From: Actinomadura litoris
GTDB taxonomy: Bacteria > Actinomycetota > Actinomycetes > Streptosporangiales > Streptosporangiaceae
DNA: 64,000 bases
Direction of reading: 5' to 3'
Assembly: GCF_009733595.1 (NCBI RefSeq)
Contig: NZ_WOFH01000007.1
Coordinates: 62,001-126,000 of the forward strand
Shown: positions 14,934 through 57,051 of the stretch, piece by piece
How positions within the stretch are numbered: position 1 is the stretch's first letter
Layout of the letters: every line of letters starts with the position of its first letter
Position numbers and translations under genes: made by a program
Notes under the pieces: model-generated
Told to the model about the DNA's origin: nothing
The model's database searches: none
Seen by the model: the letters and a program-made list of their open reading frames with translations, nothing else

Positions 14934-15712
14934 CGGGTGCTCCCCGCGCGGAGGATGTCGGCGACGACGCGTTCGTGCTCGGCGGGGTCGGTGAGGACCC
15001 GGACGGTCTCCTGGCCGCCGTCCACGGTGAGCAGGCGCTTGCCGATGAGGACGCGCTGCCCGGTGGCGAAGGACCGGCCGCGCACCAGGATCGCGGCGCC
15101 CGCCAGCGCGCGGGCGAACTCCTCCAGCTCGGCGGAGGGAGCCTGCCATTCGGCCAGGTCGCGGGGCCGGTCGCGGAACCGGTAGACGGCCTGCCACGCG
15201 CCGGACGGGACGCCGCGCTCGACCACCTGGTAGCCGTCCGCCGCGACGACGCGGAACCGGCTGCCGTGCTGCCGCTGGACCTCCGGGCTCAGCCGCAGCG
15301 GCTCCAGGTAGGACGGGCCGACGAAGCCGACGTCGACGAGGTGCACCTCGCCGTCGAGGCGGACGTGGTTGAAGACGTGCTCAAGGTCCGGGCCGAACGA
15401 GCCGTCCATCTGCCGGATGCCCGCCCCGAACACGCCGACCTCGAACCCGAGCGCCCCCAGCAGGGCGCGGAACAGGCCGCTCAGCTCGTAGCAGACGCCG
15501 CCCCGCCCGCCGAGGACGATCGCGTCGAACGCGGCGTCGAGGTCGATGTCCACGCCGGCCCACAGCGCGGTCCCGCGCCCCGCGTTCAGCGCGCTGTCGT
15601 AGGGGAACGTGGCGAGGTGCCGGTGGTGCAGGGACCGCAGGGTCTCCAGCGTCGGCGCGGTGGGGCCGCGGTGGTCGAGGGCCTTGAGGTAGGTGTCGAC
15701 GTCGAACGGCAT
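14930..15712 (-). CDS. rifF: ansamycin amide synthase (arylamine N-acetyltransferase fold)
   Basis: A 260-residue NAT-family protein. The catalytic triad is visible: Cys in GGRGGVCYELSGLF, His in NHVRLDGEVHLVDVGF and Asp in the same DVGF segment. RifF-type enzymes take the finished chain from the last ACP and close the macrolactam by attack of the AHBA amine, replacing a thioesterase. No thioesterase domain exists on the last PKS. The gene begins 3 bp after the stop of the terminal PKS gene, exactly where RifF lies relative to RifE. Very confident of family; the ring formed is inferred from module count. Confidence 0.95.
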   Translation of the reverse strand: MPFDVDTYLKALDHRGPTAPTLETLRSLHHRHLATFPYDSALNAGRGTALWAGVDIDLDAAFDAIVLGGRGGVCYELSGLFRALLGALGFEVGVFGAGIRQMDGSFGPDLEHVFNHVRLDGEVHLVDVGFVGPSYLEPLRLSPEVQRQHGSRFRVVAADGYQVVERGVPSGAWQAVYRFRDRPRDLAEWQAPSAELEEFARALAGAAILVRGRSFATGQRVLIGKRLLTVDGGQETVRVLTDPAEHERVVADILRAGSTR

Positions 15713-15715: not shown

Positions 15716-18700
15716 TCAGCCCTCCACCGGATCGGTCGGCGCGGTCGGCTCGGACAGCTCGGTCAGCAGGTGGTCGGCCAGCTCGGCCGGGGTGGCCAGG
15801 TCGAAGATCAGCATCGCGGGGAGCTCCAGGCCGGTCGCGGCGGCGAGCCGGTTGCGCAGCTCGACGGCGGTGAGCGAGACGAACCCGGCCTCGAAGAACA
15901 CCTCGGCGGGGGCGAGGGTCTCGGCGGGCGGGCGGCCCAGCACCGCCGACGCCTCGGCGCGCACGAACGCCAGCAGGGTCTCGCGGCGCTCGTCCTCGGG
16001 GAGGTCGGCGAGCCCGGCGAGCGGGTCGGCCTCCTCCTCGGGCTCCTCCGCCTCCGCCGCCGGGCGGGCGGTGGCGGCTGGCGCGGCGGACTCCAGCCAG
16101 TAGTGGCGGTGCTGGAAGGCGTAGGTGGGCAGGTCGACGCGGGGGCGGCCCGCCAGGAGCGCCGACCAGTCGACTCCGGCGCCGCGCACGCGCAGGGCCG
16201 CCGCCGACAGCAGGAACGCGCCGAGCCCGCCCTCGCCCCGGCGCAGCGTGCCGGTCACGGCGGCGGCCGGCCCGGCGGCGCCGGTGATCTCGGCCGCCAG
16301 CACGGGGTGCGCGCTCACCTCGACGAACGTGCGGAAACCTTCGTCCAGGAGGGCGCGGGTCGCGGTGTCGAAGCGGACGGTGCCGCGCAGGTTGCGGTAC
16401 CAGTAGGCGGCGTCGAGGCGCGTGGTGTCGATCCGGCCGCCCTCGACGGTCGAGTAGAACGGGACGGCGGACGGCTTCGGCGCGAGCCCGTCCAGGAGCG
16501 CGTGCAGCTCGTCGCGGATGCCCTCGACGTGCGCGCTGTGCGAGGCGTAGTCGACGGGGACGCGGCGGACCCGCACGCCGTCGTCCTCGCAGGACTCGAT
16601 CAGCTCGGCGAGTGCGTCGGCGTCCCCGGCGACGACGACCGAGGCGGGTCCGTTGACCGCCGCCGTCGCGAGGCGGCCGTCCCAGCGCCGCAGCCGGGCG
16701 GCGACCCTGTCCTCGGGGAGCGCGATCGAGGCCATGCCGCCCTTGCCCGCCAGGCCGCGGCCGATGGCCTGGCTCCGCAGCGCCACCACGCGCGCCGCGT
16801 CCTCCAGGGACAGGGCGCCGGCGATGTGCGCGGCGGCGATCTCGCCCTGCGAGTGCCCGACGACGGCGTCGGGACGGACGCCGAACGACTCCCACAGCCG
16901 CGCCAGTGCCACGTTCACCGCGAACGAGGCGGGCTGGACGACGTCCACGCGCTCCAAGCCGCCCCGCAGCTCCTCGGCCAGCGACCAGTCCACGTACGGC
17001 TTCAGGGCGGCCTCGACCTCGTCCAGCGCGCGGGCGAAGACGGGGGACCCGGCCGCGAGTTCGACGCCCATCCCCGACCACTGCGCGCCCTGCCCGGAGA
17101 ACACCAGGACGGTGCGGCCCTCGACGTCCGCGACGCCGGTCACCGCGACCGGCGAGGGCTCCCCCGCCGCGACCGCGCGCAGCCCGTCCAGCGCCTCGCC
17201 CCGGTCGGCGGCGACCACGACGGCGCGGTGGGCGAGCGCGGCCCGGCCGGACGCCAGCGACGCGGCGACGGCACCGGGCTCCAGCCCGGGGCGGTCCGCC
17301 ACGAACGCGGCGAGCCGCGCGGCCTGGGCGCGCAGCGCGTCCGGGGACGCCCCCGAGACCTCCCAGGGGGTCCGGTCCAGGGGCGGGGGCGGGGCCTCCG
17401 GTTCGGCGTCCGCCGGGGCCTGCTCGATGATCACGTGCGCGTTGGTGCCGCTGACCCCGAACGAGGACACCCCGGCCCGGCGGGGGCGACCGGGGTCGGG
17501 CCACTCCCGCCGCTCGGTGAGCAGCCGGACCGCGCCGTCCTGCCAGTCCACCTGCGAGGACGGAGCGTCCACGTGCAGCGTCGCGGGCAGGACGCCGTGC
17601 CGGAGGGCCTCGACCACCTTGATGATCCCGGCGGCCCCGGCGGCGGCCTGCGCGTGCCCGATGTTGGACTTCAGCGACCCGAGCCACAGCGGGCGGTCGT
17701 CCGGGCGGTCCCGGCCGTAGGTCGCGAGGAGCGCCTGGGCCTCGATCGGGTCGCCCAGCGGCGTGCCGGTCCCGTGGCCCTCGACCGCGTCCACGTCCTG
17801 CGGGGTCAGGCCCGCCGCGTCCAGCGCGGCGCGGATGACGCGCTGCTGGGACGGCCCGTTGGGCGCGGTGAGCCCGTTGGACGCGCCGTCCTGGTTGACG
17901 GCGCTGCCGCGCACCACCGCCAGCACGGGATGGCCGTTGCGGAGGGCGTCCGGCAGCCGCTCCAGCAGGAGCACCGCCGCGCCCTCGGCCCAGCCGGTGC
18001 CGTCGGCGGCGTCGGCGAACGCCTTGCAGCGCCCGTCGGGCGCGAGGCCGCGCTGCCGGGAGAACTCGACGAACGGCGACGGCCGCGCCATCACCGCGAC
18101 ACCCCCGGCGAGCGCGAGCCGGCATTCGCCGTCGCGCAGCGCCCGCGCCGCGAGGTGCACGGCGACCAGCGACGACGAGCACGCCGTGTCGACCGTGAGC
18201 GCCGGGCCTTCGAGGCCGAGGGTGTAGGAGACCCGGCCGGACACGACGCTGCCCGAGGTCCCGGTGCCGAGGAACCCCTCCAGGTCGCCCGGCACGTCCG
18301 CGAGGCCCGCGGCGTAGTCGTGGTACATCACGCCGGTGAACACGCCGACGCGTTCGCCGCGCAGCGCGGTGGGCGCGACGCCCGCGCGTTCGAGCGCCTC
18401 CCAGGAGATCTCCAGCATGAGCCGCTGCTGGGGGTCCATCGCCAGCGCCTCGCGCGGCGAGATCCCGAACAGCGCGGCGTCGAACGCCCCGGCGTCGCGC
18501 AGGAACCCGCCCTCGCGCACGTAGGAGGTGCCGGGGCGGTCGGGGTCGGGGTCGAAGAGCGCGCCGAGGTCCCAGCCCCGGTCGTCGGGGAAGGACGAGA
18601 GCCCGTCCCGGCCCTGCGACACCAGGTCCCACAGGTCCTCGGGCGAGGCGACCCCGCCGGGCAGGCGGCACGCCGCCGCGACGATCGCGACCGGGGCGTC

Positions 18701-18796
18701 GGCGGCCCGCGCCGCGAGCCGGTCGACCTCCTGCCGCAGCCGCTCGTTGTCGGCCAGCGCGACGCGCAGCGCCCGCACGACCCTGTCCTCGCTCAT
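15716..18796 (-). CDS. type I PKS, terminal module 4: KS-AT-ACP
   Basis: A 1026-residue single-module PKS. A short coiled-coil docking helix (about 1-33, [15 protein letters not shown]) is followed by KS (about 36-465) with the active-site Cys in DTACSSSL near residue 208 and His motifs EGHGTGT and NIGHAQ. The AT (about 565-865) has GHSQGE near 650 and YASH near 751, the methylmalonyl pattern. The ACP is at about 930-1010. There is no DH, ER, KR or thioesterase, so the last beta-keto stays unreduced before release by the amide synthase. The ACP reads [12 protein letters not shown]: the phosphopantetheine Ser is present, but the usual Asp before it is Val. The start overlaps the previous PKS stop (18793-18796). 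Confidence 0.95.
16866..16948 (-). repeat. 83-bp AT-domain repeat, copy A
   Basis: Identical over all 83 bp to copy C (27241-27323) and 82/83 identical to copy B (22013-22095). It encodes the stretch from [11 protein letters not shown] to [10 protein letters not shown] in the AT of three different modules. Third positions are conserved as well, which points to recent duplication or gene conversion rather than selection on the protein alone. Confidence 0.9.
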
Positions 18797-21700
18797 CGGT
18801 TCCCTCCGAGTGCCCGTTCCACCAGGTCGTCGACGCTCATCTCCTCGATCGCCGAGGCGACCGGGTCCTCGGGCGGGTCGGGCACCAGCTCGGCCAGCAG
18901 CCGCCGGGCCAGGTCGGCGGGGGTCGGGTGGTCGAAGACGAGCGTGGCGGGCAGCCGCACCCCGGCCGCCCGTGCGAGCCGGTTGCGCAGCTCGACCGCC
19001 GCGAGCGAGTCGAACCCGAGGTCCCGGAACGCCTGCGCCGCGCCGATCTCGTCCGGCGAGGCGTGCCCGAGGACGGACGCGGCACCGCGCCGGACGAGGT
19101 CCAGGGTGAGCCCCGGGCGCTCGGGGGCGGGCAGGGCGGCCAGGCGCGCGGCGAACGACGCGGTCTCCCGCTCGGCGGCGGGCGGCGCGGCGGCGCGGGC
19201 CGGGCGGACCAGGCCGCGCAGGACGGGCGGCAGGTCCCCCTCGGCGGCGAGGGAGCGCAGCGCGGCGAGGTCGAACCGCGCCGCGACGAGGACCGGGTCC
19301 CGCGCGCCGAGCGCGGCGTCGAACAGGGCCAGCCCCTCCGCGGTGGAGAGCCCGGCGAGCCCGGCGCGGGCGAGCCTCGCCAGGCCCGCGTCGCCGAGGT
19401 GCCCGGTCATCCCGCTCGCCCGCGCCCACAGCCCCCACGCGATGGACACGGCGGGGAGCCCCTCGGCCCGCCGCAGCCGGGCGAGCCCGTCCAGGAACCC
19501 GTTGGCCGCCGCGTACCCGGCCTGGCCCGCGTTGCCGAGGACGCCGGCGCCCGAGGAGAACAGGACGAACGCCGCGAGGTCCAGGTCGCGGGTCAGCTCG
19601 TGCAGGTTCCAGGCGGCGTCGGCCTTGGGGCGGAACACCGCGGCGATCCGCCGGGGGTCGAGGTCGTCGAGCAGCGCGTCGTCCAGGACGCCGGCCGCGT
19701 GGACGACGGCGGTCAGCGGATGCTTGGCGGGGACCGTCGCCAGGACGTCCGCCAGCGCCGCCGGGTCGGCGGCGTCGGCGGCCGCGACCCGCACCCGGGC
19801 CCCGGCCTCGCGCAGCGCGGCCGACAGCCCGTCCGCGCCGGGCGCGGCGTCGCCGCGGCGGCTGACCAGGAGGAGCTCCCGCACTCCGTGCGCCTCGACG
19901 AGGTGGCGTGCGACGAGCCCGCCCAGCGTTCCGGTGCCTCCGGTGATCAGCACCGTCCCGCCGGGATCGAGGGGCCTCGGCGCGGCCGTGTCGGCGTGCG
20001 CGATCCGGGGGACGTGGGCGCTCCCGGCCCGCAGCGACACCTGGGGTTCGCCGGAGGCGATGATCCCGGGAAGCGCCGCCCTCGCGTTCTCGGCCGCGTC
20101 CGTCTCCAGCAGGACGACCCGTCCCGGCTGCTCGCGCTGCGCCGACCGCACGAGGCCCCGGACGGCCGAGGCGGCGAGGTCGCCGGGCGCGTCGCCGGTG
20201 AGGACCGCGACCGGGCCGCCGTCGCCGCTGAGCCGGGCGGTGAGGAAGGCGAGCGCCGCCGCCGTCGCCTCCCGGGCCCGCTCCGGGGTCCGGCCGCCGT
20301 GGGCGGTGAGGTCGAGCACGTCCTCGTCCGGGATCCCGGCGGCGGACGCGGGCAGGGTGACCGGCACCGGTTCGAGCCGGTAGGCCAGGTCGTGGGCGGG
20401 CGCCAGCCGGTCGGGGGCCACGGGCCTGAGCACGAGGGAGCCGATCGAGGCGACGGGCGCGCCGCCCCGGTCGGTGACGGTGATCGCGTACGCGGACGCC
20501 GCCGCGTCGCGGGTCGCCCGGACGCGCAGCGCCGACGCCCCGGACGCGTGCAGGCGCACGCCGGTCCAGGCGAAGGGCAGCGGGATCCGGCCGTCCTCGG
20601 GGACGTCCGCGCCGAGGAGGCGGGTGGCCTGGAGCGCGGCGTCCAGCAGGGCCGGGTGCAGGGCGAAGCCGTCCGCCTCGACGCCCTCGGGCAGCTCGAC
20701 GTCCGCGAAGACCGCGTCGCCGCTCCGCCAGGCCGCGCGGAGCCCCTGGAACGCGGGCCCGTAGGCGTAGCCGTCCTCCGCCATCCGCGCGTAGAAGTCG
20801 CCGACCGGGACCGGCTCGGCGTTCGCGGGCGGCCACGGGAACGGCTCCGGCGCGGGCCCCCCGGCGGACAGCCGGCCGGTGGCGTGCCGGGTCCACCGTC
20901 CTTCGTCCCGCCGCGAGTGGATGGCGACGTCCGGGCCGTCGGCGACGACCCTGAGCTGGACCTCGTCCTCGCCGGGGACGGTCAGCGGCGTCTCGATGAC
21001 GAGTTCCTCCAGGCCGCCGTGCCCGGTCTCGGCTCCGGCGTGCAATGCCAGCTCGACCAGCGCCGAGCCCGGCAGGACGGTCGTGCCCGCGACCGCGTGG
21101 TCGGCGAGCCAGCCGTGGTCGCGCGCGGACAGGCGGCCGGTGAGCACGACGCCGCCCGGCAGCGGGACGGCGGCGCCGAGCAGCGGGTGCCCGGCGTCCT
21201 CCAGCCCGGCGGCGGTGAGGTCGCCGCCGCCGCGCCCGGTGTCGAGCCAGTAGCGGCGGCGCTGGAAGGCGTAGGTGGGCAGGTCCGCGCGCCGGAACGG
21301 GCCGGGCCCGAACGCCGCGCTCCAGTCGACGCCGACCCCGGCCGCGTGCGCCTCGCCGGCGGAACGCAGGAACCGGTCCAGCCCGCCGTCGTCGCGGCGC
21401 AGCCCGCCGACGACGACCGCGGGTGCGGGGACGGTCTCCGCGATGCTCGGGACCAGGACCGGATGCGCGCTGATCTCGATGAACGCGCCGAACCCGTCCT
21501 TGGCGAGGGTCTCGGCGGCGTCGGCGAACCGCACGGTCCGGCGCAGGTTGCGGTACCAGTAGCGGCCGTCGAGGGCCGTCGTGTCGAGCCACCGGCCTTC
21601 GACGGTGGAGAAGAAGGGCACCGGCGAGGTCCGGGGGCTGAGGCCGTCGAGCAGGTCCGCCAGTTCGCCCTCGATGGACTCGACGTGGGAGCTGTGGGAG

Positions 21701-23922
21701 GCGTAGTCGACCGGGATCCGGCGCACGCGCACACCCTCGGCCTCGTAGGCCGCGACCAGGTCGTCCAGCGCGTGCGGGTCGCCCGAGACGACCGCCGAGG
21801 CGGGGCCGTTGACGGCCGCGATCTCCAGCCCGGGGACGAGCCGCGCGGCGACCCGCTCGACCGGCAGCGCGACCGACACCATGCCGCCGCGCCCGGCCAG
21901 GCGGCGGGCGATGGCCTGGCTCCGCAGCGCCACCACGCGCGCCGCGTCCTCCAGGGAGAGCGCCCCGGCGATGTGCGCGGCGGCGATCTCCCCTTGGGAG
22001 TGGCCGACCACCGCGTCGGGACGGACGCCGAACGACTCCCACAGCCGCGCCAGCGCCACGTTCACCGCGAACGAGGCGGGCTGGACGACGTCCACCCGCT
22101 CCAGCCCGCCGCCCAACTCCTCGGTCAAGGACCAGTCCGCATACGGCTTCAACGCCGCCTCGACCTCCGCCAGCGCACCGGCGAACACCGGGGACGCCTC
22201 GGCCAGCGCCAGTCCCATCCCCGACCACTGCGCTCCCTGGCCCGGGAACACGAAGACCGTCCTGCCCTCGGCCTCGGCGGGGCCGGTCGACTCGACCTCC
22301 GCGAGCGCGGTGAGCGCGGCGGCGCGGTCACCGGCCACGACGACCGCCCGGTGCTCCAGCGTCGCCCGCGTGGTGGCGAGGGCGTGCCCGATCTCGGCCG
22401 GGGTGAGGTCGTCGTTGTCGGCCACGAACGAGGCGAGCCGTTGCGCCTGCGCCCGCAGGCCGTCCGCCGTGCGGGAGGAGAGGAGCCACGGCACCGCCCC
22501 GGGCTCGGGCCCCCGCCCGTCCTCGGCGGGCGGCTCGGCGACCGCCTGTTCGAGGATCACGTGGGCATTGGTGCCGGACACGCCGAACGACGACACGCCC
22601 GCCCGGCGGGGACGGTCGGCGTCGGGCCAGGCGCGCGGCTCTTCCAGCACCCGGACGGCACCCGCCGACCAGTCCACCTTCGACGTCGGGGCGTCCACGT
22701 GCAGGGTCGGCGGCAGGACTCCGTTGCGCAGCGCCTGCACCATCTTGATCACACCGGCCACGCCCGCCGCCGCCTGCGCGTGCCCGATGTTCGACTTCAG
22801 CGACCCGAGCCACAGGGGCCGGTCGTCCGGGCGGTCCTGGCCGTAGGTCGCCAGCAGCGCGCGCGCTTCGATGGGGTCGCCCAACTTCGTGCCCGTGCCA
22901 TGGCCCTCGACGGCGTCGACGTCGCCGCTCGACAGCCCGGCGTTCAGCAGCGCCTCGCGGATCACCCGCTCCTGGGAGGGGCCGTTAGGCGCGGTCAACC
23001 CGTTGGACGCGCCGTCCTGGTTCACCGCCGAGCCGCGCACCACCGCCAAGACCTCGTGGCCGTTGCGGCGCGCGTCCGACAGGCGCTCCAGCACCAGCAC
23101 CCCGACGCCTTCGGAGAGGCCGGTGCCGTCGGCGGCCTCGGCGAACGCCTTGCAGCGTCCGTCGGCGGCGAGCCCGCGCTGGCGGGAGAAGTCGACGAAG
23201 ACCTCCGGCGTCGCCATCACGGCCACTCCCCCGGCCAGCGCAAGCGACGACTCGCCCGAGCGCAGCGACTGCGCGGCCAGGTGCAGCGCGACCAGCGACG
23301 ACGAGCACGCCGTGTCCACCGTCACCGCCGGGCCCTCCAGGCCGAACGTGTAGGACACGCGGCCGGTGGCGACGCTGCCGGAGTTGCCGATGCCGAAGTA
23401 GCCTTCGAGGCCGTCCGGGAGGCCGCCGAGGTTGTCCCGGTAGTCGTGGAACATCAGCCCGGTGAACACCCCGGCGCGGGCGCCGCGCAGCGAGGTCGGG
23501 TCGATGCCCGCGCGTTCGAGCGCCTCCCACGAGACCTCCAGCAGCAGCCGCTGCTGGGGGTCGATGGCGAGCGCCTCGCGCGGCGAGATCCCGAACAGCG
23601 CCGCGTCGAAGCCGCCCGGCTCGTCCAGGAAGCCGCCTTCCTTGGCGTAGGTCCTGCCGCGCCGTTCGGGGTCGGGGTCGTGGAGCCGGTCCGGGTCCCA
23701 GCCCCGGTCGCGGGGGAACGCGGAGACGGCGTCGCGGCCCTCGGCGACGAGCGTCCACAGGTCCTCCGGGGAGGCGACCCCGCCGGGGAGGCGGCAGGCC
23801 ATGCCGACGATCGCGATCGGCTCGGTCCGCCGGGCCTCGGCCTCGTGCAGCCGGGCACGGGCGCGCCGCAGGTCGGCGAGGGTCCGCCGCAGGTAGTCGC
23901 GCAGCTTCTCGTCGTTGGCCAT
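18793..23922 (-). CDS. type I PKS, module 3: KS-AT-DH-KR-ACP
   Basis: A 1709-residue single-module PKS. An N-terminal docking helix (about 1-32) precedes the KS (about 33-460, DTACSSSL near 203). The AT has GHSQGE near 640 and YASH near 740 (methylmalonyl type). The DH has an intact [12 protein letters not shown] near 942 and [10 protein letters not shown] near 1092. The KR has the NADPH turn GGTGTLGG near 1325, the LDD motif in [11 protein letters not shown] (B-type) and Tyr in AGYAAANGF near 1471. The ACP is [10 protein letters not shown] near 1640. All catalytic residues checked are present, so the module should yield a methyl-branched alkene. The start at 23922 has AGGAGG upstream, 11 bp after the previous PKS stop. 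Confidence 0.95.
22013..22095 (-). repeat. 83-bp AT-domain repeat, copy B
   Basis: Differs from copies A (16866-16948) and C (27241-27323) at one synonymous position only. It lies in the AT of module 3. Confidence 0.9.
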
Positions 23923-23933
23923 GTGCTCCTCCT

Positions 23934-26900: not shown

Positions 26901-29900
26901 GATCGACTCGACGTGCGAGCTGTGCGAGGCGTAGTCGACCGCGATCCGCCGCACCCGGACGCCGTCGGACTCGCAGGCCCCGACCAGCTCGTCCAGGGCG
27001 CTCGGGTCCCCCGCGACGACCACCGACGACGGGCCGTTGACCACGGCGATCTCCAGGTCGCCGGTCAGCCGCGCGGTCACCTGGTCCAGCGGGAGCGCGA
27101 CCGACACCATGCCGCCCCGGCCCGCCAGCCCGCGCGCGATGGCCTGGCTCCGCAGCGCCACCACGCGCGCCGCGTCCTCCAGGGAGAGCGCTCCGGCGAT
27201 GTGCGCGGCGGCGATCTCGCCCTGCGAGTGCCCGACGACGGCGTCGGGACGGACGCCGAACGACTCCCACAGCCGCGCCAGTGCCACGTTCACCGCGAAC
27301 GAGGCGGGCTGGACGACGTCCACCCGGTCCAGGGGGTCGGTCAAAGACCAGGCGACGTAGGGCTCCAGGGCCCGCGCCGCCTCGGCCAGCGCGTCGGCGA
27401 AGACCGGGGACGCCTCGGCGAGGGCGCGGCCCATCCCCGCCCACTGGGCGCCCTGGCCGGGGAACACGAAGACCGTCCGGCCCGTGACGTCCGCCGTGCC
27501 GGTGACCAGGGCCGGGGACGGGTAGCCCTGCGCCAGGGCGTCGAGCGCCTCGGCCGCCTCGTCCCGGTCGGCGGCCACGATGACGGCGCGGTCGGTGAGG
27601 GCCGCTCGGGCGGTGGCCAGCGCGTGCCCGATCTCCGCCCCGGCCGGGGCGCCGTCCTGCCTGGCGAACGACGCGAGCCGGGCCGCCTGCGCCCGCAGCG
27701 CCTCCGGCCCGCGCGCCGACACCGGCCACACCGTCACGGCCGGTTCCGCGGCCTCGGCCGCGGCGACCGGCTCGGCGACCGGCTCCGCCTCCTCGATGAT
27801 CACGTGGGCGTTGGTGCCGGACACCCCGAACGACGACACGCCCGCCCGGCGCGGACGGCCGACCTCGGGCCACTCGCGCGGCTCGTCCAAGAGCCGGACG
27901 TCGCCCGCCGACCAGTCGATCCGCGACGACGGGGTCTCCGCGTGCAGGGTCCGGGGCAGCACGCCGTTGCGGAGCGCCTGCACCATCTTGATCACACCGG
28001 CCACGCCCGCGGCCGCCTGTGTGTGGCCGAGGTTCGACTTGACCGAACCCAGCCACAGCGGCCGGTCGTCCGGGCGGTCCTGCCCGTAGGTCGCCAGAAG
28101 TGCCTGCGCCTCAATGGGGTCGCCCAGCCTCGTGCCCGTCCCGTGGGCCTCGACGGCGTCGACGTCGGCGCCGGTCAGGCCGGCGTTCGCGAGCGCCTGG
28201 CGGATCACCCGCTCCTGGGAGGGGCCGTTCGGCGCGGTCAACCCGTTGGACGCCCCGTCCTGGTTCACCGCCGAACCCCGCACGACCGCCAAGACCTCGT
28301 GGCCGTTGCGGCGCGCGTCCGACAGGCGCTCCAGCACCAGCACCCCGACGCCCTCCGACATGCCGAAGCCGTCGGCGTCCTCGCCGAACGCCTTGCAGCG
28401 GCCGTCGGCGGCCAGCCCGCGCTGCCGGGAGAAGCCGACCACGCCCTCCAGCGTGGACATGATCGAGACGCCGCCCGCGAGCGCCAGCGAGGACTCGCCC
28501 GAGCGCAGCGACTGCGCGGCCAGGTGCAGCGCCACCAGCGACGACGAGCACGCCGTGTCCACCGTCACCGCCGGGCCCTCCAGTCCGAGCGAGTAGGAGA
28601 CCCGGCCGGTCAGCACGCTCGCCGCGGTGCCGATGACGAGGTAGCCCTCGTCGACCCGGTCGCGGGCGGCGTTCGTCCCGTAGTCCTGGCCGTGCGTCCC
28701 GACGAAGACACCGGTGGGGGTCCCGCGCAGCGAGGTGGGGTCGACGCCCGCCCGCTCCAGCGCCTCCCACGACACCTCCAGCAGCAGCCGCTGCTGCGGG
28801 TCCATGGCCAGCGCCTCGCGCGGGTTGACGCCGAAGAAGTCCGCGTCGAAGTCGGCCACGCCGCGCAGGAACCCGCCGCCCCGGACGTAGGTCCGGCCCG
28901 GCGCGTCGGGGTCGGGGTCGCGGACGCCGTCGAGGTCCCAGCCGCGGTCCGCCGGGAAGGCGGTGACCGCGTCGCCGCCGGTGGTCACGAACCGCCACAG
29001 GTCCTCGGCCGAGTCCACGTCCCCGGGGAAGCGGCACGCCATCGCCACGATCGCGACGGCGTCCGAGCCCGCGACCGCCGAGGACACCGACCGGGGCGCA
29101 GCCGCCGTCCCGGAGAGCGCGGAGCGCAGGTGCGCGGCCAGCCGCTCGGCCGTGGGATGGTCGAAGACCAGCGTCGCGGGCAGGCGGAGCCCGGTGGCCT
29201 CGGCCAGCCGGTTGCGCAGTTCCACCGCCGTGAGGGAGTCGAGGCCGAGCTCCCGGAACGCGCGTCCCGGTTCGACGGCGTCGGGCCCGGCGTGCCCGAG
29301 GACGGCGGCCGCCGCGCCCCGCACGACGTCGAGCAGGTCGCTCGCGTGCGGGATCTCGGGGCCGGTCTCCGCCCGCCGGGCCTTGGCGGGCGCCAGGGAA
29401 CGCAGCAGCGGCGGCACCTCGCCGCCCGCGCGGACGGCCGCGAGGTCCAGCCGGATCGGCACGAGCGCCGGGCGGTCGCTCTCCAGCGCGGCGTCGAACA
29501 GCGCGAGGCCCTGCTCGGCGGTCAGCGGACGGGTCCCGGCGCGCGCCATCCGCGCGAGGTCGGTGTCGGAGAGCCGTCCGCCCATCCCTTCGGCCCCGCC
29601 CCACAGCCCCCACGCGAGGGAGACCGCGGGCAGTCCCCGCTCACGCCGGTGGCGGGCGAGCGCGTCGAGGAAGGCGTTCCCGGCCGCGTAGTTGCCCTGC
29701 CCCGGGCTGCCGAACGTGGCGGACGCCGAGGAGTACAGCACGAACGCGGCGAGGTCGAGGTCGCGGGTCAGCTCGTGGAGGTTCCAGGCGCCGTCCACCT
29801 TGGGCGCGAGGGCGGCGTTCCAGGCGTCCGGTCCGAGCGAGGCCAGCACGCCGTCGGCGACGATCCCGGCCGCGTGGACCACGCCGGTGAGCCGGTCGGC

Positions 29901-32900
29901 GACCTGCCCGACGACCGCGGCGAGGGCGTCCCGGTCCGCCACGTCGGCCGCGACGGCCCGCACCCGCGCCCCGTGCCCGGACAGCTCCTCGACCCATTCC
30001 TCCGGCGCGCCGGACCGCGAGAGCAGGACCAGCTCCGCGACGCCGTGCGCCCGGACGAGGTGCCCGGCGACGAGCCGGCCGAGCCCGCCCGTCGCGCCGG
30101 TGACCAGCACGGTCCCGCCCGCCAGCCGCGAGCGCTCCGGCGGCTCCGGGAGCGGCGCGCGGGTGAGGCGCGCCACCAGCACGCGCCCCTCGCGCACCGC
30201 GAGCCGCGGTTCCTCGGAGACCAGCGGGAGCGCGGCGGCGACCGCCGCGTCGGTCGGGTCGCCGGTGACCAGGGACGCGAACCGGCCGGGGTGCTCCGAC
30301 TGCGCGCTGCGCACCAGGCCGCGGACCGCCTCGTGCGCGAGGTCGTCCGGCCGGGTGACGACCAGGAGTCGGGCCGAGGCCGCGCGCGGGTCGTCCGGCC
30401 ACTCGCGCAGGACGCGCAGGACGTCGAGCCCCACCGCGCGGACGCGCTCGGCGAGCGGCAGCGCGGGGTCGCCGCCTTCCACGCGGTGCACGACGACCTC
30501 CGGCACCGGACGCACCGCCTCGTCCGCCGGAACCCACGTCACCTCGAACATCCGGCCGCGCGCGCCGCCCGAGGCGAGGCGGCCGGGTTCGAGCGGGCGC
30601 AGCGTGAGCGACGCGACGTCCACCACCGGCGTCCCGGACGGGTCCGCCGCGCTGATGGACACGGCGTCGGGCCCGATCGCGGTCAGGTGGACGCGCAGCG
30701 TCCGCGCGCCGGTCGCGTGCAGGCGCACACCCGACCACGAGAACGCCAGGCGCGGCCGGTCGGGGTCGGGCAGCAGCCGCGCGGCGGCGATCGGGTGCAG
30801 GGCGGCGTCGAGCAGCGCGGGGTGGAGACCGTAGCCGTCCAGGTCGACGTCCTCCGGGAGCCGGAGCTCGACCCACGCCTCCCCGTCGCCCGCCCAGGCC
30901 GCCCGGACCGCGTGGAAGGCCGGGCCGTAGTCGACGGTGAGGTCGTCGTAGAAGCCGTCGAGGTCGAGCGGGCGCGCGGCGGCGGGCGGCGGCCAGGGGA
31001 CGGCCGTGCCGGGACGGGTGTCGTCGGTCAGCGTCGCGGTGGCGTTCTCGGTCCACTCCGCGTCGGCGCCGTCGCGCGTGTGGACGCGGACGGTCCGTCC
31101 CTCCACGTGGAACTGGACGTCGAGCGCCCCGCCCTCGGGCACCACGATCGGCGCGGACCCGGTCAGCTCGGCGACGGCGGGCGCGCCGCGCGCGTCGCCG
31201 ATGTGGTGGAGGACGTCGAGCAGCGCGGTGCCGGGCAGCAGCACGGCGCCGTCCACGCGGTGGTCGGCGAGCCATCGCGGGTCGCGCGCGGTCAGCCGCC
31301 CGGTGAGCACGGCGCCGTCCGCTCCGGCGAGCGGGACGAGCGCGTCGAGCAGCGGGTGCCCGGCCGCCTCCGCCCCGGCTCCGGCGCCCCGGGCGGGTTC
31401 GAGCCAGTAGCGCTCGCGCTGGAAGGCGTAGGTCGGCAGCGCGACCGGACGCGGCTCGGCGCCCGCGAACACCGCCGTCCAGTCGACCGGGACGCCCCGC
31501 ACGTGCAGTTCGCCGAGCGAGAGCAGCAGGCGCCGCGTGCCGCCGTCGTCGCGGCGCAGCGTCCCGACGACCACCGACGGCTCCGGCGCGAGCTCCGCGA
31601 TCGCGGGCGCCAGCACGGGATGCGCGCTGACCTCGACGAACGCGCGGAAGCCCTCGTCGGCGAGGGTCTCGACGGCGTCGGCGAAACGGACCGTCCGGCG
31701 CAGGTTGCGGTACCAGTAGCCGCCGTCGAGCGTCGTGGTGTCGAGCCAGCGGCCCTCGACCGTGGAGAAGAACGGCACCCGCGACGGCCGTGGAGCGAGG
31801 CCGTCGAGCAGGGCGGCCAGCTCGTCCTCGATCGACTCGACGTGGGAGGTGTGCGAGGCGTAGTCGACCGGGATCCGCCGCGCGCGCACACCCTCGGCCT
31901 CGCAGGCCGCGACCAGCTCGTCCAGGGCGTGCGGGTCGCCCGCGACGACCACCGAGGCCGGGCCGTTGACGGCCGCGATCTCCAGCCCGGGGACGAGCCG
32001 GGCGGCGGCCTCCTCGACCGGCAGCGCGACCGACACCATCCCGCCCCGGCCGGACGGGCCGCGCGCGATGGCCTGGCTCCGCAGCGCCACCACGCGCGCC
32101 GCGTCCTCCAGTGACAGCGCCCCGGCGACGTGCGCCGCGGCGATCTCGCCCTGGGAGTGGCCCACGACCGCGTCCGGTGCCACGCCGTAGGAGCGCCACA
32201 CCTCCGCCAGCGCGACCATGACCGCGAAGGAGGCGGGCTGCACGACGTCCACCCGGTCGAGGGGGCCGCGCAGCTCCTCGGTGAGCGACCAGTCCACGTG
32301 GGCGGAGAGCGCGGCGGCGACCTCGGCCAGCCGGGCGGCGAAGACCGGCGACGTCTCCAGCAGCTCCGCGCCCATCCCGGCCCACTGCGTGCCCTGGCCG
32401 GGGAACACGAACACCGTCCTGCCGTCCACGTCGGCGACGCCCGACACGACGTCCTGCGCGGGGACCCCCTCCGCGAGCGCGCCCAGCCCGGCGGCGGCCT
32501 CGTCCCGGCCGCCCGCCACGACCACCGCGCGGTGGTGCAGCGCGGCGCGGGTCGTGGCCAAGGAGGAGGCGATGTCGGCCGGCCGGGTCTCGGGACGGGC
32601 GAGGACGTCGTCGCGCAGCAGCCCGGCCTGCGCGCGCAGCGCGGCCGCCGCGCGGGCGGAGACCGGCAGGGCGACCACGTCCAGGTCGGGCGCCGAGGGG
32701 ACGCCGGGGGACGCGGCGTCCGGAGCCTGCTCGATGATCACGTGGGCGTTGGTGCCGGACACCCCGAACGACGACACCCCCGCCCGGCGCGGACGGTCCA
32801 CCTCGGGCCAGCCGCGCGCCTCGTCCAGCAGCCGGACGCCGCCGGACGACCAGTCCACCTTCGACGACGGCGCGTCCACGTGCAGGGTCCTGGGCAGCAC

Positions 32901-35900
32901 GCCGCTGCGGAGCGCCTGCACCATCTTGATCACACCGGCCACGCCCGCCGCCGCCTGCGCGTGCCCGATGTTCGACTTCAGCGACCCGAGCCACAGCGGC
33001 TGATCGTCCGGGCGGTCCTGGCCGTAGGTCGCCAGCAGTGCCTGCGCCTCGATGGGGTCGCCCAGCCTCGTGCCCGTGCCATGGCCCTCGACGGCGTCGA
33101 CGTCGGCGCCGGTCAGACCGGCGTTCGCGAGCGCCTGGCGGATCACCCGCTCCTGGGAGGGGCCGTTCGGCGCGGTCAACCCGTTGGACGCCCCGTCCTG
33201 GTTCACCGCCGAGCCGCGCACCACCGCCAAGACCTCATGGCCGTTGCGGCGCGCGTCCGACAGGCGCTCCAGCACCAGCACCCCGACGCCCTCGGACCAG
33301 GCGGTGCCGTCGGCGGCCTCGGCGAACGCCTTGCAGCGGCCGTCGGCGGCCAGCGCGCCCTGCCTGGTGAACTCGACGAACGACGTGGGACGGGCCATCA
33401 CGGCCACTCCCCCGGCCAGCGCCAGCGACGACTCGCCCGAGCGCAGCGACTGCGCCGCCAGGTGCAGCGCCACCAGCGACGACGAGCACGCCGTGTCCAC
33501 CGTCACCGCCGGGCCCTCCAGCCCCAGCGTGTAGGACACGCGGCCGGAGGCGACGCTGCCGGAGTTGCCGGTGCCCAGATAGCCCTCCAGGTCGGCGGGC
33601 ACGTCGCCGAGGTCGGTCGCGTAGTCGTGGTACATCAGGCCGGAGAAGACGCCGACGTCGCGGCCGCGCAGCGAGGTGGGATCGACGCCCGCCCGCTCCA
33701 GCGCCTCCCACGACACCTCCAGCAGCAGCCGCTGCTGCGGGTCCATGGCCAGCGCCTCGCGCGGGGAGACGCCGAAGAACGCCGCGTCGAAGTCCCCGGC
33801 GTCGTGGAGGAACCCGCCGTGCCGCGTGGCCGAGCGCAGGGACTCCAGGTCCCAGCCCCGGTCGGCGGGGAACCCGGTGATCGCCTCCGCGCCCTCGGCG
33901 ACGAGGCGCCACAGGCCGTCGGGGGAGGAGATCCCGCCGGGGAGGCGGCACGCCATGCCCACGATCGCGACGGGCTCGCCGGACGAGACGTGCGGGACGG
34001 CGGCGGCCCCGGCGGTGTCCTCGCCGAGCAGCGCCGCCCGCAGGTACCGCGCCACGGCGAGCGGGGACGGGTGGTCGAAGGCCAAGGTGGCGGGGAGCGC
34101 CAGGCCCGACCGGACGACGAGCCGGTCGCGCAGCGCGACCGCGGTCACCGAGGTGAGGCCCAGGTCGCGGAAGGCCGCGTCGGCGGGGACGTCGCCGCCG
34201 TCCCCGAGCAGACCGGCGACCTCCGCGCGGACCAGGTCGCTCAGCAGCCGGTCGCGGTCGCTCTCGCCGGGCAGGTCCAGGAGGCGGCGGCGCAGTCCGG
34301 CCGTCACGGCGCCGTCGGCCGCCACCGGGGCCGACGAGGACGACGGCGCCTCGACCAGGCCGCGCAGCGGGGCGGGCACCTCGTCGGCCCGCAGCGCCGC
34401 GAGGTCCAGGCGGAACGCGGCGAGGCAGGTGTCGCCGGACGCGAGCGCCGCGTCCAGCATCGCCGTGCGCTCCTGGGCCGTGAGCCGCCCGGCGCCGGGC
34501 GGCGGCGCGCCGCCCTCGACGGGCCCGACCGCCAGCGAGAGTGCGGGCAGCCCCCCGGCCGCGCGGCGGCGGGCCAGCGCGTCGAAGGAGGCGGCCGGCG
34601 CGGCCTCGTCCTCCCGCCCCGCGGCCCCCAGAAGCCCGGTGACCGGGGAGAGCAGCACGAACGCGTCCAGGTCCCAACCGGCGGCGAGTTCGGACAGGCG
34701 CACCGCGTCGTCCCCGTCGCCGGATGCGTGCACGACGGCCCCGACCGGGCCGTGCGCGGCGAGCGCGGCGGTGTCGAGGTCGGCGGCGGCGACCTCGACG
34801 CCCCGCTCGTCCAGGTCGGCGCGCAGGTCCGCCGCGCCGCGCTCGCCCGCCAGCACCAGCCTCCGGACGCCGTAGGCGCCGGTCAGGTGGCGGGCGACGG
34901 CGGCGCCGAGTTCGCCGTCCGCGCCGGTGAGGAGGACGGCCCGGTCCGCGCCGAACGGGGGCCGGGCACCGGCGTCCGCCGCCGTGGCGACCCGCGCCGC
35001 GCGCGGCACCAGCGGCACGCCCGACCGGACGGCCGCCTGCGGCTCGCCCGCCGCCACCACCTCGGCGGCGAGCCGCTCGGCGTCGGCGCCCGCGACGGCG
35101 TCCAGGTCGAGCAGCGTGAACCGGCCCGGGAACTCGGCCTGGACGCAGCGCACCACGCCCCATACCGCGGCCTGCCCGGCATCCGGACCGGCGTCCGTGC
35201 CCTCGACGCCGACCGCCCCGCGCGTCACGACGACGCGGTGCGCGCCCGCGTTCCGCTCGTCGCCCGCCCACTCCCTCAGCCGGGCGGCGAGGCCGTGCGC
35301 GTCCGCCGCCAGGACGACCTCGGGTGCGGCGTCGCCCGAACCTGACCGGCCCGGGACGGAGGGCAGCGGGATCCAGTCCAGCCGGAACAGCGTGTCGTGG
35401 CGGCCCGCGCCGGACGCGCGCAGCCGCGCCGGGCGCTCCAGCAGGACGCGGCGGGTGACCTTCCCCGAGGCCGTGCGCGGGACCTCGTCGATCTCGTACA
35501 GCTCCTCCGGCACCTTGAAGTAGGCGAGGCGCTCCCGGCAGGCGGCGAGCAGCGCCTCCGGGTCCAGGCCGTCCGGGCCCGGCACCACGAAGGCCACCGG
35601 CACCTCGCCGAGCACCTCGTGCGGGCGCCCGGCGACCGCGACGTCGGCGACCCCGGGCCGGCCGCGCAGGACCTCCTCCACCTCTCCCGGGTGGATGTTC
35701 TCGCCGCCCCGGATGATCAGTTCCTTGATCCGCCCGGTGATGGTGAAGTAGCCGGCCGCGTCCCGCCGGGCCAGGTCGCCGGTGCGGTACCAGCCGTCGC
35801 GGAACGCGGCGGCGGTGGCCTCGGGCTGGTTGTGGTAGCCGGCCATCACGCTCGGGCCGCGGACCCAGACCTCGCCCTCCTCGCCCGGCCCGGCGTCCAC

Positions 35901-36962
35901 GCCGGTCTCGGGGTCCACCAGCCGCACGCCGAGGCCCGGCACGGGCAGGCCGCACGACCCCTCGACGCGGGCGCCGGTCGGCCAGTTGATCGTGATGGAC
36001 CCGCAGGTCTCGGTGCTGCCGTAGGCGTCCAGCAGCGGCGCGCCGAACGCCTCCTCGAACTCCCGGCGCAGCGCCGCCGTGGTGACCGCGCCGCCGACCA
36101 GGCACATCCGCAGGTGCGGCGCCCGGAACCCGTCCTCGCGCGCGGCGCGGACGAGGTGGTGGTACATCGTCGGGACGCCCGCGAGGAACGTGGCCCCGTC
36201 CTCGCGCAGCGCGGCGAGCACCTCGGCCGCGCTGAAGCCGTCCAGGACGCGCGCGGTCGCGCCGACCGCCGTGACGCCGAGCACGCACGCGATGTGGGAG
36301 AGGCTGTGGAACAGCGGCAGCGGCCACAGGACGCGGTCCTCGGCCGTCAGCCCCGGCACCGGGACGTAGCAGGCCGCGACCGACCACAGGCAGTTGCGCT
36401 GGGTGGACACGACCCCCTTCGGCCTGCCGGTGGTGCCGGAGGTGTAGAGCATCCACGCCGGGTCGTCCAGGCCGAGGTCGTCGCGGGCGGGCGTGACGGG
36501 CTCGGTCCCCGCGAGCGCCTCGAAGGAGAGCGCCCCCGGCGGGGCGTCGCCCACGACGACGACCGTGATGTCCGGCCGGTCCCGGAGCACGCGGCCCAGC
36601 GGCGCGCCGGGCGCGGCGTGCGCGGCCTCGGTGAGCACCAGCCGGGCGCCGCTGTCGTCGAGGAGGTGCGCCAGCTCCGCCTCGGTGAGGCGCGGGTTCA
36701 CCGGGACGCCGACCGCGCCCGCCCGGACCAGCGCCAGATAGCCCTCGACCATCTCGACGCGGTTGCCGAGCAGGAGGGCCGCGCGGTCGCCCGGCTGGAG
36801 CCGGCGCTCGGCGAGATGGCCCGCGAGGCGGCGCGTCCGCGTTTCCAGTTCCGCATAGGCGACGGCCCGCCGCGCGTCCCGGAAGGCGATCTTCCGGGGA
36901 GCGCGGCGGGCGTGTTCGGTCAACAATTCGGGCAGCGGCCGAATCAGCTCCGTTCGCAGCAT
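23934..36962 (-). CDS. type I PKS, AHBA loading module plus modules 1 and 2
   Basis: A 4342-residue RifA-like protein. The loading part has an acyl-CoA-ligase/adenylation domain (1-515; [11 protein letters not shown] near 173-183, C-terminal TASGKVTRR), a degenerate KR-like region (about 600-850, glycine turn GADGELG and no KR tyrosine) and an ACP (GLTSVTAV near 935). Module 1: KS (Cys near 1158), AT (GHSQGE near 1602, YASH near 1702), DH ([12 protein letters not shown] near 1900, [10 protein letters not shown] near 2051), KR (GATGGLG near 2282, GNYAAGN near 2425), ACP near 2571. Module 2: KS (Cys near 2803), AT (YASH near 3343), DH near 3531, KR (LDD motif; GNYAAAN near 4058), ACP near 4226, then a docking tail. 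The start [14 protein letters not shown] matches RifA-type proteins and excludes an in-frame ATG 84 bp upstream. Confidence 0.95.
26728..26859 (-). repeat. 132-bp AT-linker repeat, module 2 copy
   Basis: Matches 31657-31788 (module 1 of the same gene) at 131 of 132 positions. It encodes the segment around [20 protein letters not shown] near the end of the AT. The two modules otherwise differ clearly in their AT cores, so identity is local. Confidence 0.9.
27241..27323 (-). repeat. 83-bp AT-domain repeat, copy C
   Basis: Identical to copy A (16866-16948) in a separate gene 10.4 kb away. It lies in the AT of module 2, whereas module 1 of the same protein has a divergent sequence at this place ([17 protein letters not shown]). 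Confidence 0.9.
31657..31788 (-). repeat. 132-bp AT-linker repeat, module 1 copy
   Basis: Partner of 26728-26859 with one mismatch (position 31749). KS segments of modules 1 and 2 near 33060-33290 and 28120-28350 are also almost identical. Confidence 0.9.
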
Positions 36963-37063: not shown

Positions 37064-37080
37064 CCCCTAACCGTCCCCCT
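37064..37080 (-). promoter_or_regulatory. AGGGG direct-repeat motif upstream of PKS1
   Basis: CCCCT (37064-37068) and CCCCCT (37075-37080) have their T residues 12 bp apart. On the minus strand this reads as two AGGGG boxes directed at PKS1, 102-118 bp from its start. The site touches the rifM stop codon (37079-37081), so a separate PKS promoter would fit in the 116-bp gap between rifM and PKS1. Confidence 0.55.
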
Positions 37081-56993: not shown

Positions 56994-57051
56994 GGTTCGG
57001 GCTCGCTCTCCTTGTGGTGGTGGCTGTGTCTCGTGGTGGCCGGCGCCGGTT

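What the first reader, a model, noticed from the sequence alone, without database searches (positions are those of the whole stretch)
15716..36962. AHBA-primed assembly line with only four extension modules, all methylmalonyl-type
The window shows a complete PKS set: RifA-like loading (A-KR0-ACP), modules 1-2 on the same protein, one-module proteins for 3 and 4, then RifF. Rifamycin and geldanamycin lines are much longer. AHBA plus four C3 units gives a C19 pentaketide. Counting ring atoms (N, nine chain carbons, three aryl carbons) gives a lactam of about 13 members. All four ATs have GHSQG and YASH, so four methyl branches are predicted. Small pentaketide ansamycins are known (microansamycin and cebulactam classes), but this locus adds dideoxysugar genes, an MCO and a HyuAB operon.
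Basis: partly seen in the sequence, partly recalled or inferred. Interest (0 to 1): 0.8.

Follow-up and report, generated by a model that had tools for sequence, protein, structure and literature searches.

The report
Four-module ansamycin antibiotic gene cluster
This is a nearly complete bacterial gene cluster, in a relative of the actinomycete Actinomadura, that should build a small ansamycin-type ring molecule with the same backbone as the known cebulactams, with extra genes that would add an unusual sugar and oxidise it.

Summary
Three collinear genes (15716-36962, minus strand) encode A-KR0-ACP, two KS-AT-DH-KR-ACP modules, a third such module and a final KS-AT-ACP, followed by RifF. All four ATs carry GHSQG, YASH and RVDVVQ. 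No further module is indicated: the last protein has no docking-type tail, and four relatives with complete loci keep the same three genes. The predicted lactam is 13-membered; after ring hydroxylation its formula is C19H23NO5 with four methyls, the formula, ring size and methyl count reported for cebulactam A3. The all-propionate scaffold is therefore known (cebulactam/Q-1047/goondansamycin/shengliangmycin group). Less expected is the tailoring set: genes for a 2,3,6-trideoxysugar (rhodinose-type) rather than a dideoxysugar, a phenoxazinone-synthase-like copper oxidase, a hydroquinone-reductase-like protein, a luciferase-like monooxygenase, and a caprolactamase-like HyuAB pair that recurs inside the corresponding clusters of two Parafrankia. 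RifH is missing from the cluster, and the genome has one class II DAHP synthase only, so AHBA supply is an open point. Verdict: a well-read finding, but a new member of a known kind, with an untested and partly novel tailoring set.

The parts
23934..36962 (-). PKS 1 (RifA-like): loading A-KR0-ACP, module 1 (about 29127-33977) and module 2 (about 24138-29063), both KS-AT-DH-KR-ACP
18793..23922 (-). PKS 2: module 3, docking-KS-AT-DH-KR-ACP
15716..18796 (-). PKS 3: module 4, docking-KS-AT-ACP, no reductive domains, no C-terminal docking-type tail
14930..15712 (-). RifF-type amide synthase (macrolactam release)
   Evidence: PF00797 131.7 bits; next to module 4
13371..14933 (-). FAD aromatic hydroxylase (Rif-Orf19/Nam7/TpmE role inferred)
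   Evidence: NF004829 641 bits over cut-off 390; PF01494; beside RifF in relatives
10670..13387 (+). LuxR-type (LAL) regulator
   Evidence: PF13191, PF00196
8507..10378 (-). multicopper oxidase closest to phenoxazinone synthase PhsA; possible Tat signal
   Evidence: 3gyr 468 bits; NF045554 644 bits, below cut-off 950; PF10518 20.4 bits, below cut-off 22.7
7013..8479 (+). NDP-hexose 2,3-dehydratase
   Evidence: PF03559 521 bits
5785..6822 (-). NDP-hexose 3-ketoreductase-like GFO/IDH/MocA oxidoreductase (start uncertain)
   Evidence: PF01408, PF22725; 62-66% to genes in clusters of CB02058, S. hokutonensis and P. colletiae, 75-91% in five Actinomadura
4866..5834 (+). dTDP-glucose 4,6-dehydratase (RmlB-like)
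   Evidence: PF16363/PF01370; RmlB name recalled
3805..4869 (+). glucose-1-phosphate thymidylyltransferase (RmlA-like)
   Evidence: PF00483; RmlA name recalled
2638..3627 (-). glutathionyl-hydroquinone-reductase-like GST family protein (possible quinone detoxification)
   Evidence: PF13409/PF13410; 4pts 222, 3r3e YqjG 194, 4uss 168 bits
1365..2597 (-). EryCIII-like glycosyltransferase GT1 (not found in the CB02058, S. hokutonensis and P. colletiae stretches)
   Evidence: PF06722, PF21036; TIGR04516 287 bits, below cut-off 440
37079..37777 (-). RifM-like phosphatase
   Evidence: TIGR01454 341.8 bits over cut-off 246.65
37767..38870 (-). RifL-like oxidoreductase
   Evidence: PF01408, gene order; RifL name recalled
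38867..40051 (-). AHBA synthase (RifK)
   Evidence: 162 relatives in genome contigs, best 80 kept, 69-96% identity; RifK name recalled
40235..40666 (+). RifJ, type II 3-dehydroquinase
   Evidence: NF003807 182 bits over cut-off 130
40663..41589 (+). RifN-like ROK kinase (kanosamine kinase role inferred)
   Evidence: PF00480
41573..42610 (+). RifG-like aminodehydroquinate synthase
   Evidence: aroB 264.5 bits, below equivalog cut-off 305
42612..43409 (+). RifI-like quinate/shikimate dehydrogenase
   Evidence: matches below cut-offs
43487..46231 (+). SARP-type regulator (BTAD and AAA domains)
   Evidence: PF03704 161.5 bits, PF13191
46222..47655 (-). DHA2-type MFS exporter
   Evidence: TIGR00711 183 bits, below cut-off 230.2
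47768..48367 (+). NADPH-dependent FMN reductase
   Evidence: PF03358
48504..49372 (-). two PNPOx-like proteins (48504-48971, 48968-49372)
   Evidence: PF01243; co-clustered in both Parafrankia
49423..50307 (-). SDR oxidoreductase (candidate sugar 4-ketoreductase; unproven)
   Evidence: PF00106
50304..51512 (-). glycosyltransferase GT2, MGT family; the GT also found in CB02058, S. hokutonensis and P. colletiae, so the better rhodinosyltransferase candidate
   Evidence: TIGR01426 311 bits over cut-off 260
51509..53260 (-). HyuB / caprolactamase beta-like; metal tetrad D-H-D-H kept
   Evidence: 6yra_B 305 bits and alignment; NF050157 358 bits, below cut-off 1000
53257..55356 (-). HyuA / caprolactamase alpha-like ATPase subunit
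   Evidence: 6yra_A 398 bits; NF050156 511 bits, below cut-off 1000
55353..60598 (-). Dpp/Opp-type ABC importer: binding protein, ATPase and two permeases
   Evidence: homologues in corresponding clusters
60736..63384 (-). GH78 alpha-L-rhamnosidase-like protein
   Evidence: PF17389, PF08531; 61% homologue in the P. colletiae cluster
63676..63999 (+). luciferase-like monooxygenase (runs on to 64710 beyond the window; an NDP-hexose 3-dehydratase-like gene follows at 65789-67093)
   Evidence: PF00296 and PF01041

Best explanation
A pentaketide ansamycin cluster with a complete assembly line. AHBA is loaded by A-KR0-ACP and extended by four methylmalonyl units. Module 1 leaves a hydroxyl (KR1 looks active, DH1 looks damaged), modules 2 and 3 each give a double bond, module 4 leaves a beta-ketone, and RifF closes a 13-membered lactam of formula C19H23NO4. 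The FAD enzyme hydroxylates the ring to a hydroquinone, giving C19H23NO5, the cebulactam formula; the PhsA-like copper oxidase probably takes it to the quinone or quinol level. A D-series 2,3,6-trideoxyhexose of rhodinose type is made and attached by GT2 (or GT1). Expected ions: m/z 346.165 for the aglycone, and 460.233 or 458.217 for the glycoside at hydroquinone or quinone level. Shown by sequence: domain order, AT motifs, gene content, conservation. Inferred: redox outcome of module 1, order of tailoring, sugar identity, transfer of the sugar to the ansamycin. HyuAB, the ABC importer and the luciferase-like enzyme appear to belong to the locus, but their substrates are unknown.
For: Domain order; four of four ATs GHSQG/YASH/RVDVVQ; AT1 closest in the PDB to DEBS and pikromycin synthases, 386 to 369 bits for the first five rows, against about 104 for FabD. 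GHSQG and YASH are in all four ATs of the A. terrae, A. fibrosa, Streptomyces CB02058 and Saccharopolyspora hirsuta lines. DH1 shares a three-residue loss at GYxYGPxF and DxxxH in place of DxxxQ with DH1 of A. terrae, A. fibrosa, CB02058, S. hirsuta and K. purpeofusca; DH2 and DH3 do not. KR2 and KR3 carry LDD and KR1 does not. Predicted formula equals cebulactam A3. The cluster genes have homologues in the same order in A. terrae. Sugar genes lie in the same clusters in Actinomadura, CB02058, S. hokutonensis and P. colletiae.
Against: No metabolite was measured. DH1 keeps its catalytic His and Asp, so an active DH1 is possible. RifH (aminoDAHP synthase) is absent from the cluster, and only one class II DAHP synthase exists in the held genome, so AHBA supply may be weak or the cluster silent; class I enzymes were not searched. 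No sugar 4-ketoreductase is pinned down. MCO, HyuA and HyuB score below the NCBIfam cut-offs of their nearest named families. The sugar 2,3-dehydratase has no match at 1e-60 in P. soli, S. hirsuta or K. purpeofusca, so the sugar is not a fixed part of this group.
Confidence: 0.75

Rival explanations
1. The cluster makes plain, unglycosylated cebulactam/goondansamycin-type lactams; the sugar genes serve another product or are silent.
For: Backbone identical by prediction to cebulactam; S. hirsuta and K. purpeofusca, with the same PKS type, have no 2,3-dehydratase match at 1e-60 in the genome; goondansamycins, placed in the cebulactam scaffold group, come from an Actinomadura by the title in that paper's reference list.
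Against: 2,3-dehydratase, 3-ketoreductase and the 3-dehydratase-like gene lie at the PKS/RifF locus in CB02058, S. hokutonensis and P. colletiae as well as in Actinomadura, and GT2 is there too.
Confidence: 0.2
2. It is a tetrapetalone producer proper: one AT takes ethylmalonyl despite its YASH motif, and the product is the C26 rhodinoside.
For: Same sugar logic; 3 methylmalonyl + 1 ethylmalonyl + rhodinosyl at quinone level computes to C26H33NO7, the tetrapetalone A formula as I recall it.
Against: All four ATs are methylmalonyl-type by motif; I noticed no crotonyl-CoA carboxylase/reductase gene in the cluster (not searched genome-wide), whereas the S. hokutonensis AHBA locus has Ccr-like genes (label by likeness to the G052 gene read, not family-scanned).
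Confidence: 0.08
3. DH1 works, so module 1 gives a double bond and a more unsaturated aglycone (C19H21NO4 after hydroxylation).
For: DH1 keeps HxxxGxxxxP and DxxxH.
Against: GYxYGPxF is shortened in all six lines aligned; tropansamycin DH1 is reported inactive, consistent with its C7 hydroxyl (PMC13000494).
Confidence: 0.1
4. The line is incomplete: further modules elsewhere in the genome act after module 4.
For: The genome has many other modular PKS KS domains.
Against: Module 4 has no C-terminal docking-type tail whereas PKS 1 and PKS 2 do (judged by eye); RifF follows directly; LM12-M3-M4-RifF is contiguous in A. terrae, A. fibrosa, CB02058 and S. hirsuta.
Confidence: 0.02

Closest known systems
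Cebulactam / Q-1047 / goondansamycin / shengliangmycin pentaketide ansamycins
   Same: Predicted AHBA + four C3 units, four methyls, 13-membered lactam, benzylic hydroxyl, beta-ketoamide and ring hydroquinone/quinone; same formula C19H23NO5 as cebulactam A3.
   Different: The cebulactams in the passages read are unglycosylated. Whether goondansamycins carry sugar was not checked (paper not held); no sequence of these clusters was available to compare.
Tetrapetalones (Streptomyces)
   Same: Recalled: rhodinosylated pentaketide ansamycins oxidised beyond the hydroquinone, matching the sugar logic here.
   Different: Listed as a different extender scaffold (PMC13000494); recalled ethylmalonyl unit, whereas all four ATs here are methylmalonyl-type. 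The tetrapetalone cluster paper is not held.
Tropansamycin (tpm) cluster, Streptomyces LR53
   Same: Three PKS genes, amide synthase, Nam7-like hydroxylase, LAL and SARP regulators, inactive KR0, inactive DH1.
   Different: Extender order C3-C2-C3-C3; P450 tailoring; no sugar genes among those named in the main text (its gene table was not seen).
Caprolactamase / 5-oxoprolinase / hydantoinase (HyuAB) family
   Same: Two subunits, 398 and 305 bits to CapA and CapB; CapB metal tetrad conserved.
   Different: Below the NCBIfam equivalog cut-offs; sits in an ansamycin cluster rather than a catabolic operon; substrate unknown.
Phenoxazinone synthase PhsA
   Same: Closest solved structure (3gyr, 468 bits).
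   Different: Below the equivalog cut-off; expected substrate is an ansamycin ring.

Membership tests
AHBA-primed (ansamycin) clusters | AHBA synthase and pathway genes beside the PKS | tested here: met
   RifG, I, J, K, L, M, N-like genes present (order and names recalled); RifH absent
AHBA-primed (ansamycin) clusters | A-(KR0)-ACP loading module on the first PKS | tested here: met
   KR0 without catalytic Tyr motif
AHBA-primed (ansamycin) clusters | RifF-type amide synthase after the last PKS | tested here: met
Pentaketide ansamycins | Exactly four extension modules | tested here: met
   four KS in the locus; no docking-type tail on the last
Cebulactam-type scaffold | Extender order C3-C3-C3-C3 | tested here: met
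   AT motifs; biochemical specificity not measured
Cebulactam-type scaffold | Reduction pattern OH / ene / ene / keto | tested here: inconclusive
   modules 2-4 fit; DH1 judged impaired from motif loss, not proven
Cebulactam-type scaffold | The isolated compound | not testable with these tools
   no metabolite data
Tetrapetalone | Trideoxysugar (rhodinose) genes (requirement recalled) | tested here: inconclusive
   dehydratase, ketoreductase and 3-dehydratase-like genes found; 4-ketoreductase not pinned down
Tetrapetalone | One ethylmalonyl-type AT (requirement recalled) | tested here: not met
   four of four YASH
Caprolactamase (CapAB) | NCBIfam equivalog cut-off | tested here: not met
   511 and 358 bits, cut-off 1000 each
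Caprolactamase (CapAB) | Metal ligands D41, H99, D102, H124 of CapB | tested here: met
   alignment read against PMC8453981
Phenoxazinone synthase PhsA | NCBIfam equivalog cut-off | tested here: not met
   644 bits, cut-off 950

The most novel reading that the evidence does not exclude
HyuAB is a dedicated ATP-dependent lactam hydrolase for the ansamycin. Together with the Dpp-type importer and the glycosyltransferase in the same run of overlapping genes it re-imports and opens, or otherwise remodels, the 13-membered macrolactam, as a self-protection or recycling route that none of my literature searches turned up for any ansamycin; the PhsA-like oxidase, possibly exported, works on the ring outside the cell.
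Probability: 0.12. Interest if true: 0.65.

Novelty: new member of a known kind. Interest (0 to 1): 0.36.

Why it matters
It ties a genome-only cluster to a concrete, testable product: exact masses, and a published unglycosylated relative for comparison. It also marks a group of loci with the same PKS type in seven Actinomadura genomes (this one included), two Parafrankia, two Streptomyces, a Kitasatospora and a Saccharopolyspora; the PKS set is complete in four of these relatives (A. terrae, A. fibrosa, CB02058, S. hirsuta) and cut by contig ends or broken in the others. No paper in the library holds hydantoinase, biosynthetic gene cluster and ansamycin together, or phenoxazinone synthase and ansamycin together. 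If HyuAB proves to act on the lactam, it would be a new form of ansamycin self-resistance or recycling. If not, the locus is a solid but ordinary addition to the pentaketide ansamycins.

Tried and rejected
Rejected: a longer line with modules elsewhere (docking-type tails, relatives); malonyl or ethylmalonyl ATs (motifs, PDB neighbours); HyuAB as a chance neighbour (recurs in two Parafrankia clusters); the LPMO gene as part of the cluster (next to it in A. terrae, but not at the corresponding edge in A. montaniterrae).

Led nowhere: papers on tetrapetalone production and goondansamycins are not held. Searches for hydantoinase with ansamycin clusters and for phenoxazinone synthase with ansamycin found 0 papers each; a wider search showed 12 of 19 rows, none with both of the latter terms. 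One search used a stretch out of frame and found nothing; repeated in frame. My first gene call missed the 3-ketoreductase and called a probably spurious 107-aa frame (6317-6640); it also missed the 3-ketoreductase and FMN reductase in A. terrae, where both are present at 91-92%. I first took an unmatched gene at the locus of four relatives for a P450; its sequence and PF01474 show it is a DAHP synthase (RifH).

Results against my reading: HyuA has no close match in A. physcomitrii (best 39%; its RifK contig ends inside GT2), and no match at 1e-100 in CB02058, S. hokutonensis or K. purpeofusca; S. hirsuta reaches 42% only. The copper oxidase has no match at 1e-60 in either Parafrankia, S. hokutonensis, S. 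hirsuta or K. purpeofusca (P. colletiae has one at 31%). P. soli has HyuAB but no 2,3-dehydratase match.


Full report
What was checked. The window is C34:62001-126000 of a 9.16 Mb draft genome. Its AHBA synthase is 96% identical to that of Actinomadura terrae and 86-90% to those of five other Actinomadura, and the window genes have homologues in the same order in A. terrae at 87-98%, so the organism is an Actinomadura-like actinomycete.

The assembly line. Pfam gives loading AMP-binding, KR and ACP, then KS-AT-DH-KR-ACP twice; KS-AT-DH-KR-ACP; and KS-AT-ACP, with N-terminal docking domains on the second and third. All four KS keep the active-site Cys and His motifs. KR0 lacks the catalytic Tyr motif; KR1-KR3 have Gly-rich, Ser and Tyr motifs; LDD (the B-type mark, recalled) is in KR2 and KR3 only. 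The first two proteins end in docking-type tails and the third does not (judged by eye), and RifF begins three bases after it.

Extender choice. Four of four ATs carry GHSQG, YASH and RVDVVQ. Around eight other KS domains of the same genome (the eight loci returned, out of 54 matches) ten ATs could be read: 3 of 10 show HAFH with GHS[VI]G and 7 show YASH or YGSH with GHSQG. AT1's best PDB matches are DEBS and pikromycin synthases (386 to 369 bits in the first five rows); FabD gives about 104. The complete lines of A. terrae, A. fibrosa, Streptomyces sp. CB02058 and Saccharopolyspora hirsuta also have four of four YASH; K. purpeofusca shows three of three readable. The meaning of the motifs is recalled knowledge.

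Reduction pattern. Aligning DH domains of the window and relatives shows that DH1 of the window, A. terrae, A. fibrosa, CB02058, S. hirsuta and K. purpeofusca (six of six) share a three-residue loss at GYxYGPxF and DxxxH in place of DxxxQ, while DH2 and DH3 of the same lines have the full length of that motif, with small changes in some. Two rows of that alignment were set aside: Amon_M1 is a module 2, because its gene is cut by a contig end, and G052_M3 has no DH; the DH1 of G052, a different kind of line, is intact at this motif. DH1 is therefore probably impaired and module 1 leaves a hydroxyl, as in tropansamycin, whose DH1 is reported inactive (PMC13000494). Bookkeeping gives acid C19H25NO5, lactam C19H23NO4 and, with one ring hydroxyl, C19H23NO5. 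Cebulactam A3 is reported as C19H23NO5 with four methyl groups, a 13-membered macrolactam, a C-9 hydroxyl, a C-3 ketone and a tetrasubstituted benzene ring (PMC13302746 section 2.2); it also has an ether bridge, an isomerisation that leaves the formula unchanged. The same bookkeeping with the tropansamycin order gives C18H21NO5, the reported formula of tropansamycin E, so the method is checked on a second case.

Known class. The tropansamycin paper (whole main text read) lists six earlier pentaketide ansamycin scaffolds defined by extender units, one of them Q1047s/cebulactams/goondansamycins/shengliangmycins, and a title in its reference list places goondansamycins in an Actinomadura. So a four-module, all-propionate AHBA line is not new. 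That the S. hirsuta locus might be a cebulactam cluster is an inference from genus and architecture only. Other papers were seen only as passages (PMC10722151; PMC13302746; PMC12114206; PMC9686540; PMC12860625; PMC8453981) or as search listings.

Sugar genes. RmlA- and RmlB-like genes and a 2,3-dehydratase (PF03559, 521 bits), a GFO/IDH/MocA 3-ketoreductase-like gene (5785 to about 6822, minus) and, 1.8 kb beyond the window end, a DegT-family protein (65789-67093 in window numbering) that matches, at 71-74%, genes next to the 3-ketoreductase in CB02058, S. hokutonensis and P. colletiae. Its assignment as an NDP-hexose 3-dehydratase is recalled family knowledge. Together they predict a 2,3,6-trideoxyhexose; I noticed no 3,5-epimerase (not searched for by family), which suggests the D series. 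The 4-ketoreductase is not pinned down (SDR 49423-50307 is a candidate). A glycoside of rhodinose mass at quinone level would be C25H31NO7, one CH2 less than tetrapetalone A as I recall its formula.

Which neighbours belong. I searched the genomes of 40 of the 80 AHBA loci for RifF: 33 of 40 had a match at 1e-30, and 12 of 40 a RifF at 59% or more. In those 12 plus the window's own genome (13), a 2,3-dehydratase at 65% or more over nearly full length is in 10, the copper oxidase at 60% or more in 8, and HyuA at 63% or more in 8 (in P. soli 69% over residues 6-300; 57% over the whole). In ten other AHBA genomes used as controls none has a close copy: best HyuA 43%, best oxidase 48%, best near-full-length dehydratase 54%, half-length dehydratase matches up to 59%. 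In P. colletiae one contig holds RifF, FAD hydroxylase, GT2, SDR, GH78, ABC genes, the 3-dehydratase-like gene, 3-ketoreductase, 2,3-dehydratase, both PNPOx proteins, the luciferase-like enzyme and HyuAB; P. soli holds HyuAB, the luciferase-like enzyme, both PNPOx proteins and a permease within 16 kb of RifF. In a sample of 298 family genomes, RifF passes 1e-60 in 5; at 83% or more it is in 3, and HyuA at 78% or more is in the same 3, with one further match at 46% (only the best 8 and 3 candidates per genome were scored). These three are of one genus and so not independent; the Parafrankia cases are from another order (recalled). The window's left edge is near GT1: in A. montaniterrae the genes beyond it are unrelated to those here.

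HyuAB. The closest solved structures are caprolactamase CapA and CapB (398 and 305 bits). In the printed alignment the CapB ligands D41, H99, D102 and H124, whose alanine mutants lost activity (PMC8453981 passages), align to identical residues in the window protein. It is thus probably a working member of the ATP-dependent lactam hydrolase/carboxylase family; its substrate is unknown.

Weak point. RifH is missing: the genome has a single class II DAHP synthase. Of 14 genomes tested, 8 have just one; G007, G010, G015 and G027 have a copy on the AHBA/RifF contig; G001 and G003 have a second copy elsewhere. No line with HyuAB showed RifH in the stretches read, and no line with RifH showed HyuAB. 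The AHBA route here must therefore borrow the housekeeping enzyme or is starved. The tropansamycin wild type gave product only after AHBA was fed.

Verdict. What is worth following up is the tailoring set, above all HyuAB and the trideoxysugar.

Noticed in passing
L125-L126 (G052:C2:15-36 kb): Another genus of the same family has AHBA genes and RifF with only a loading-plus-module-1 protein (2705 aa) and one KS-AT-ACP protein (1020 aa, AT motif QAGH), with Ccr-, KASIII- and HBDH-like genes (labels from reading) between: an apparent two-module AHBA line. The contig end repeats this region with differences, so collapsed modules cannot be excluded.
   Followed up: partly
L021:1-3315 and L110, L116, L117 (S. 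hokutonensis): Trideoxysugar genes together with Ccr-, KASIII- and HBDH-like genes at AHBA/RifF loci (two contigs): a candidate tetrapetalone-type cluster.
   Followed up: partly
whole genome; L124 (G000:C21:3424-4722): No RifH-type second class II DAHP synthase; the only one is 46-56% identical to the four RifH copies of relatives.
   Followed up: yes
window 2638-3627: Glutathionyl-hydroquinone-reductase-like protein in a hydroquinone ansamycin cluster of an actinomycete (which would use mycothiol, recalled); a possible quinone-adduct detoxifier.
   Followed up: partly
window 516-977: Lytic polysaccharide monooxygenase gene beside the cluster (PF03067), probably unrelated.
   Followed up: no
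L010, window numbering 69177-71060: A protein that looks like a B12-binding radical SAM enzyme (label from reading, not scanned), in a run of genes also present in A. terrae; perhaps a separate small cluster.
   Followed up: no
L023 and L035 (Parafrankia soli): One strain holds two AHBA synthase loci, one followed by a loading PKS similar to the one here (78% over 546 aa).
   Followed up: no
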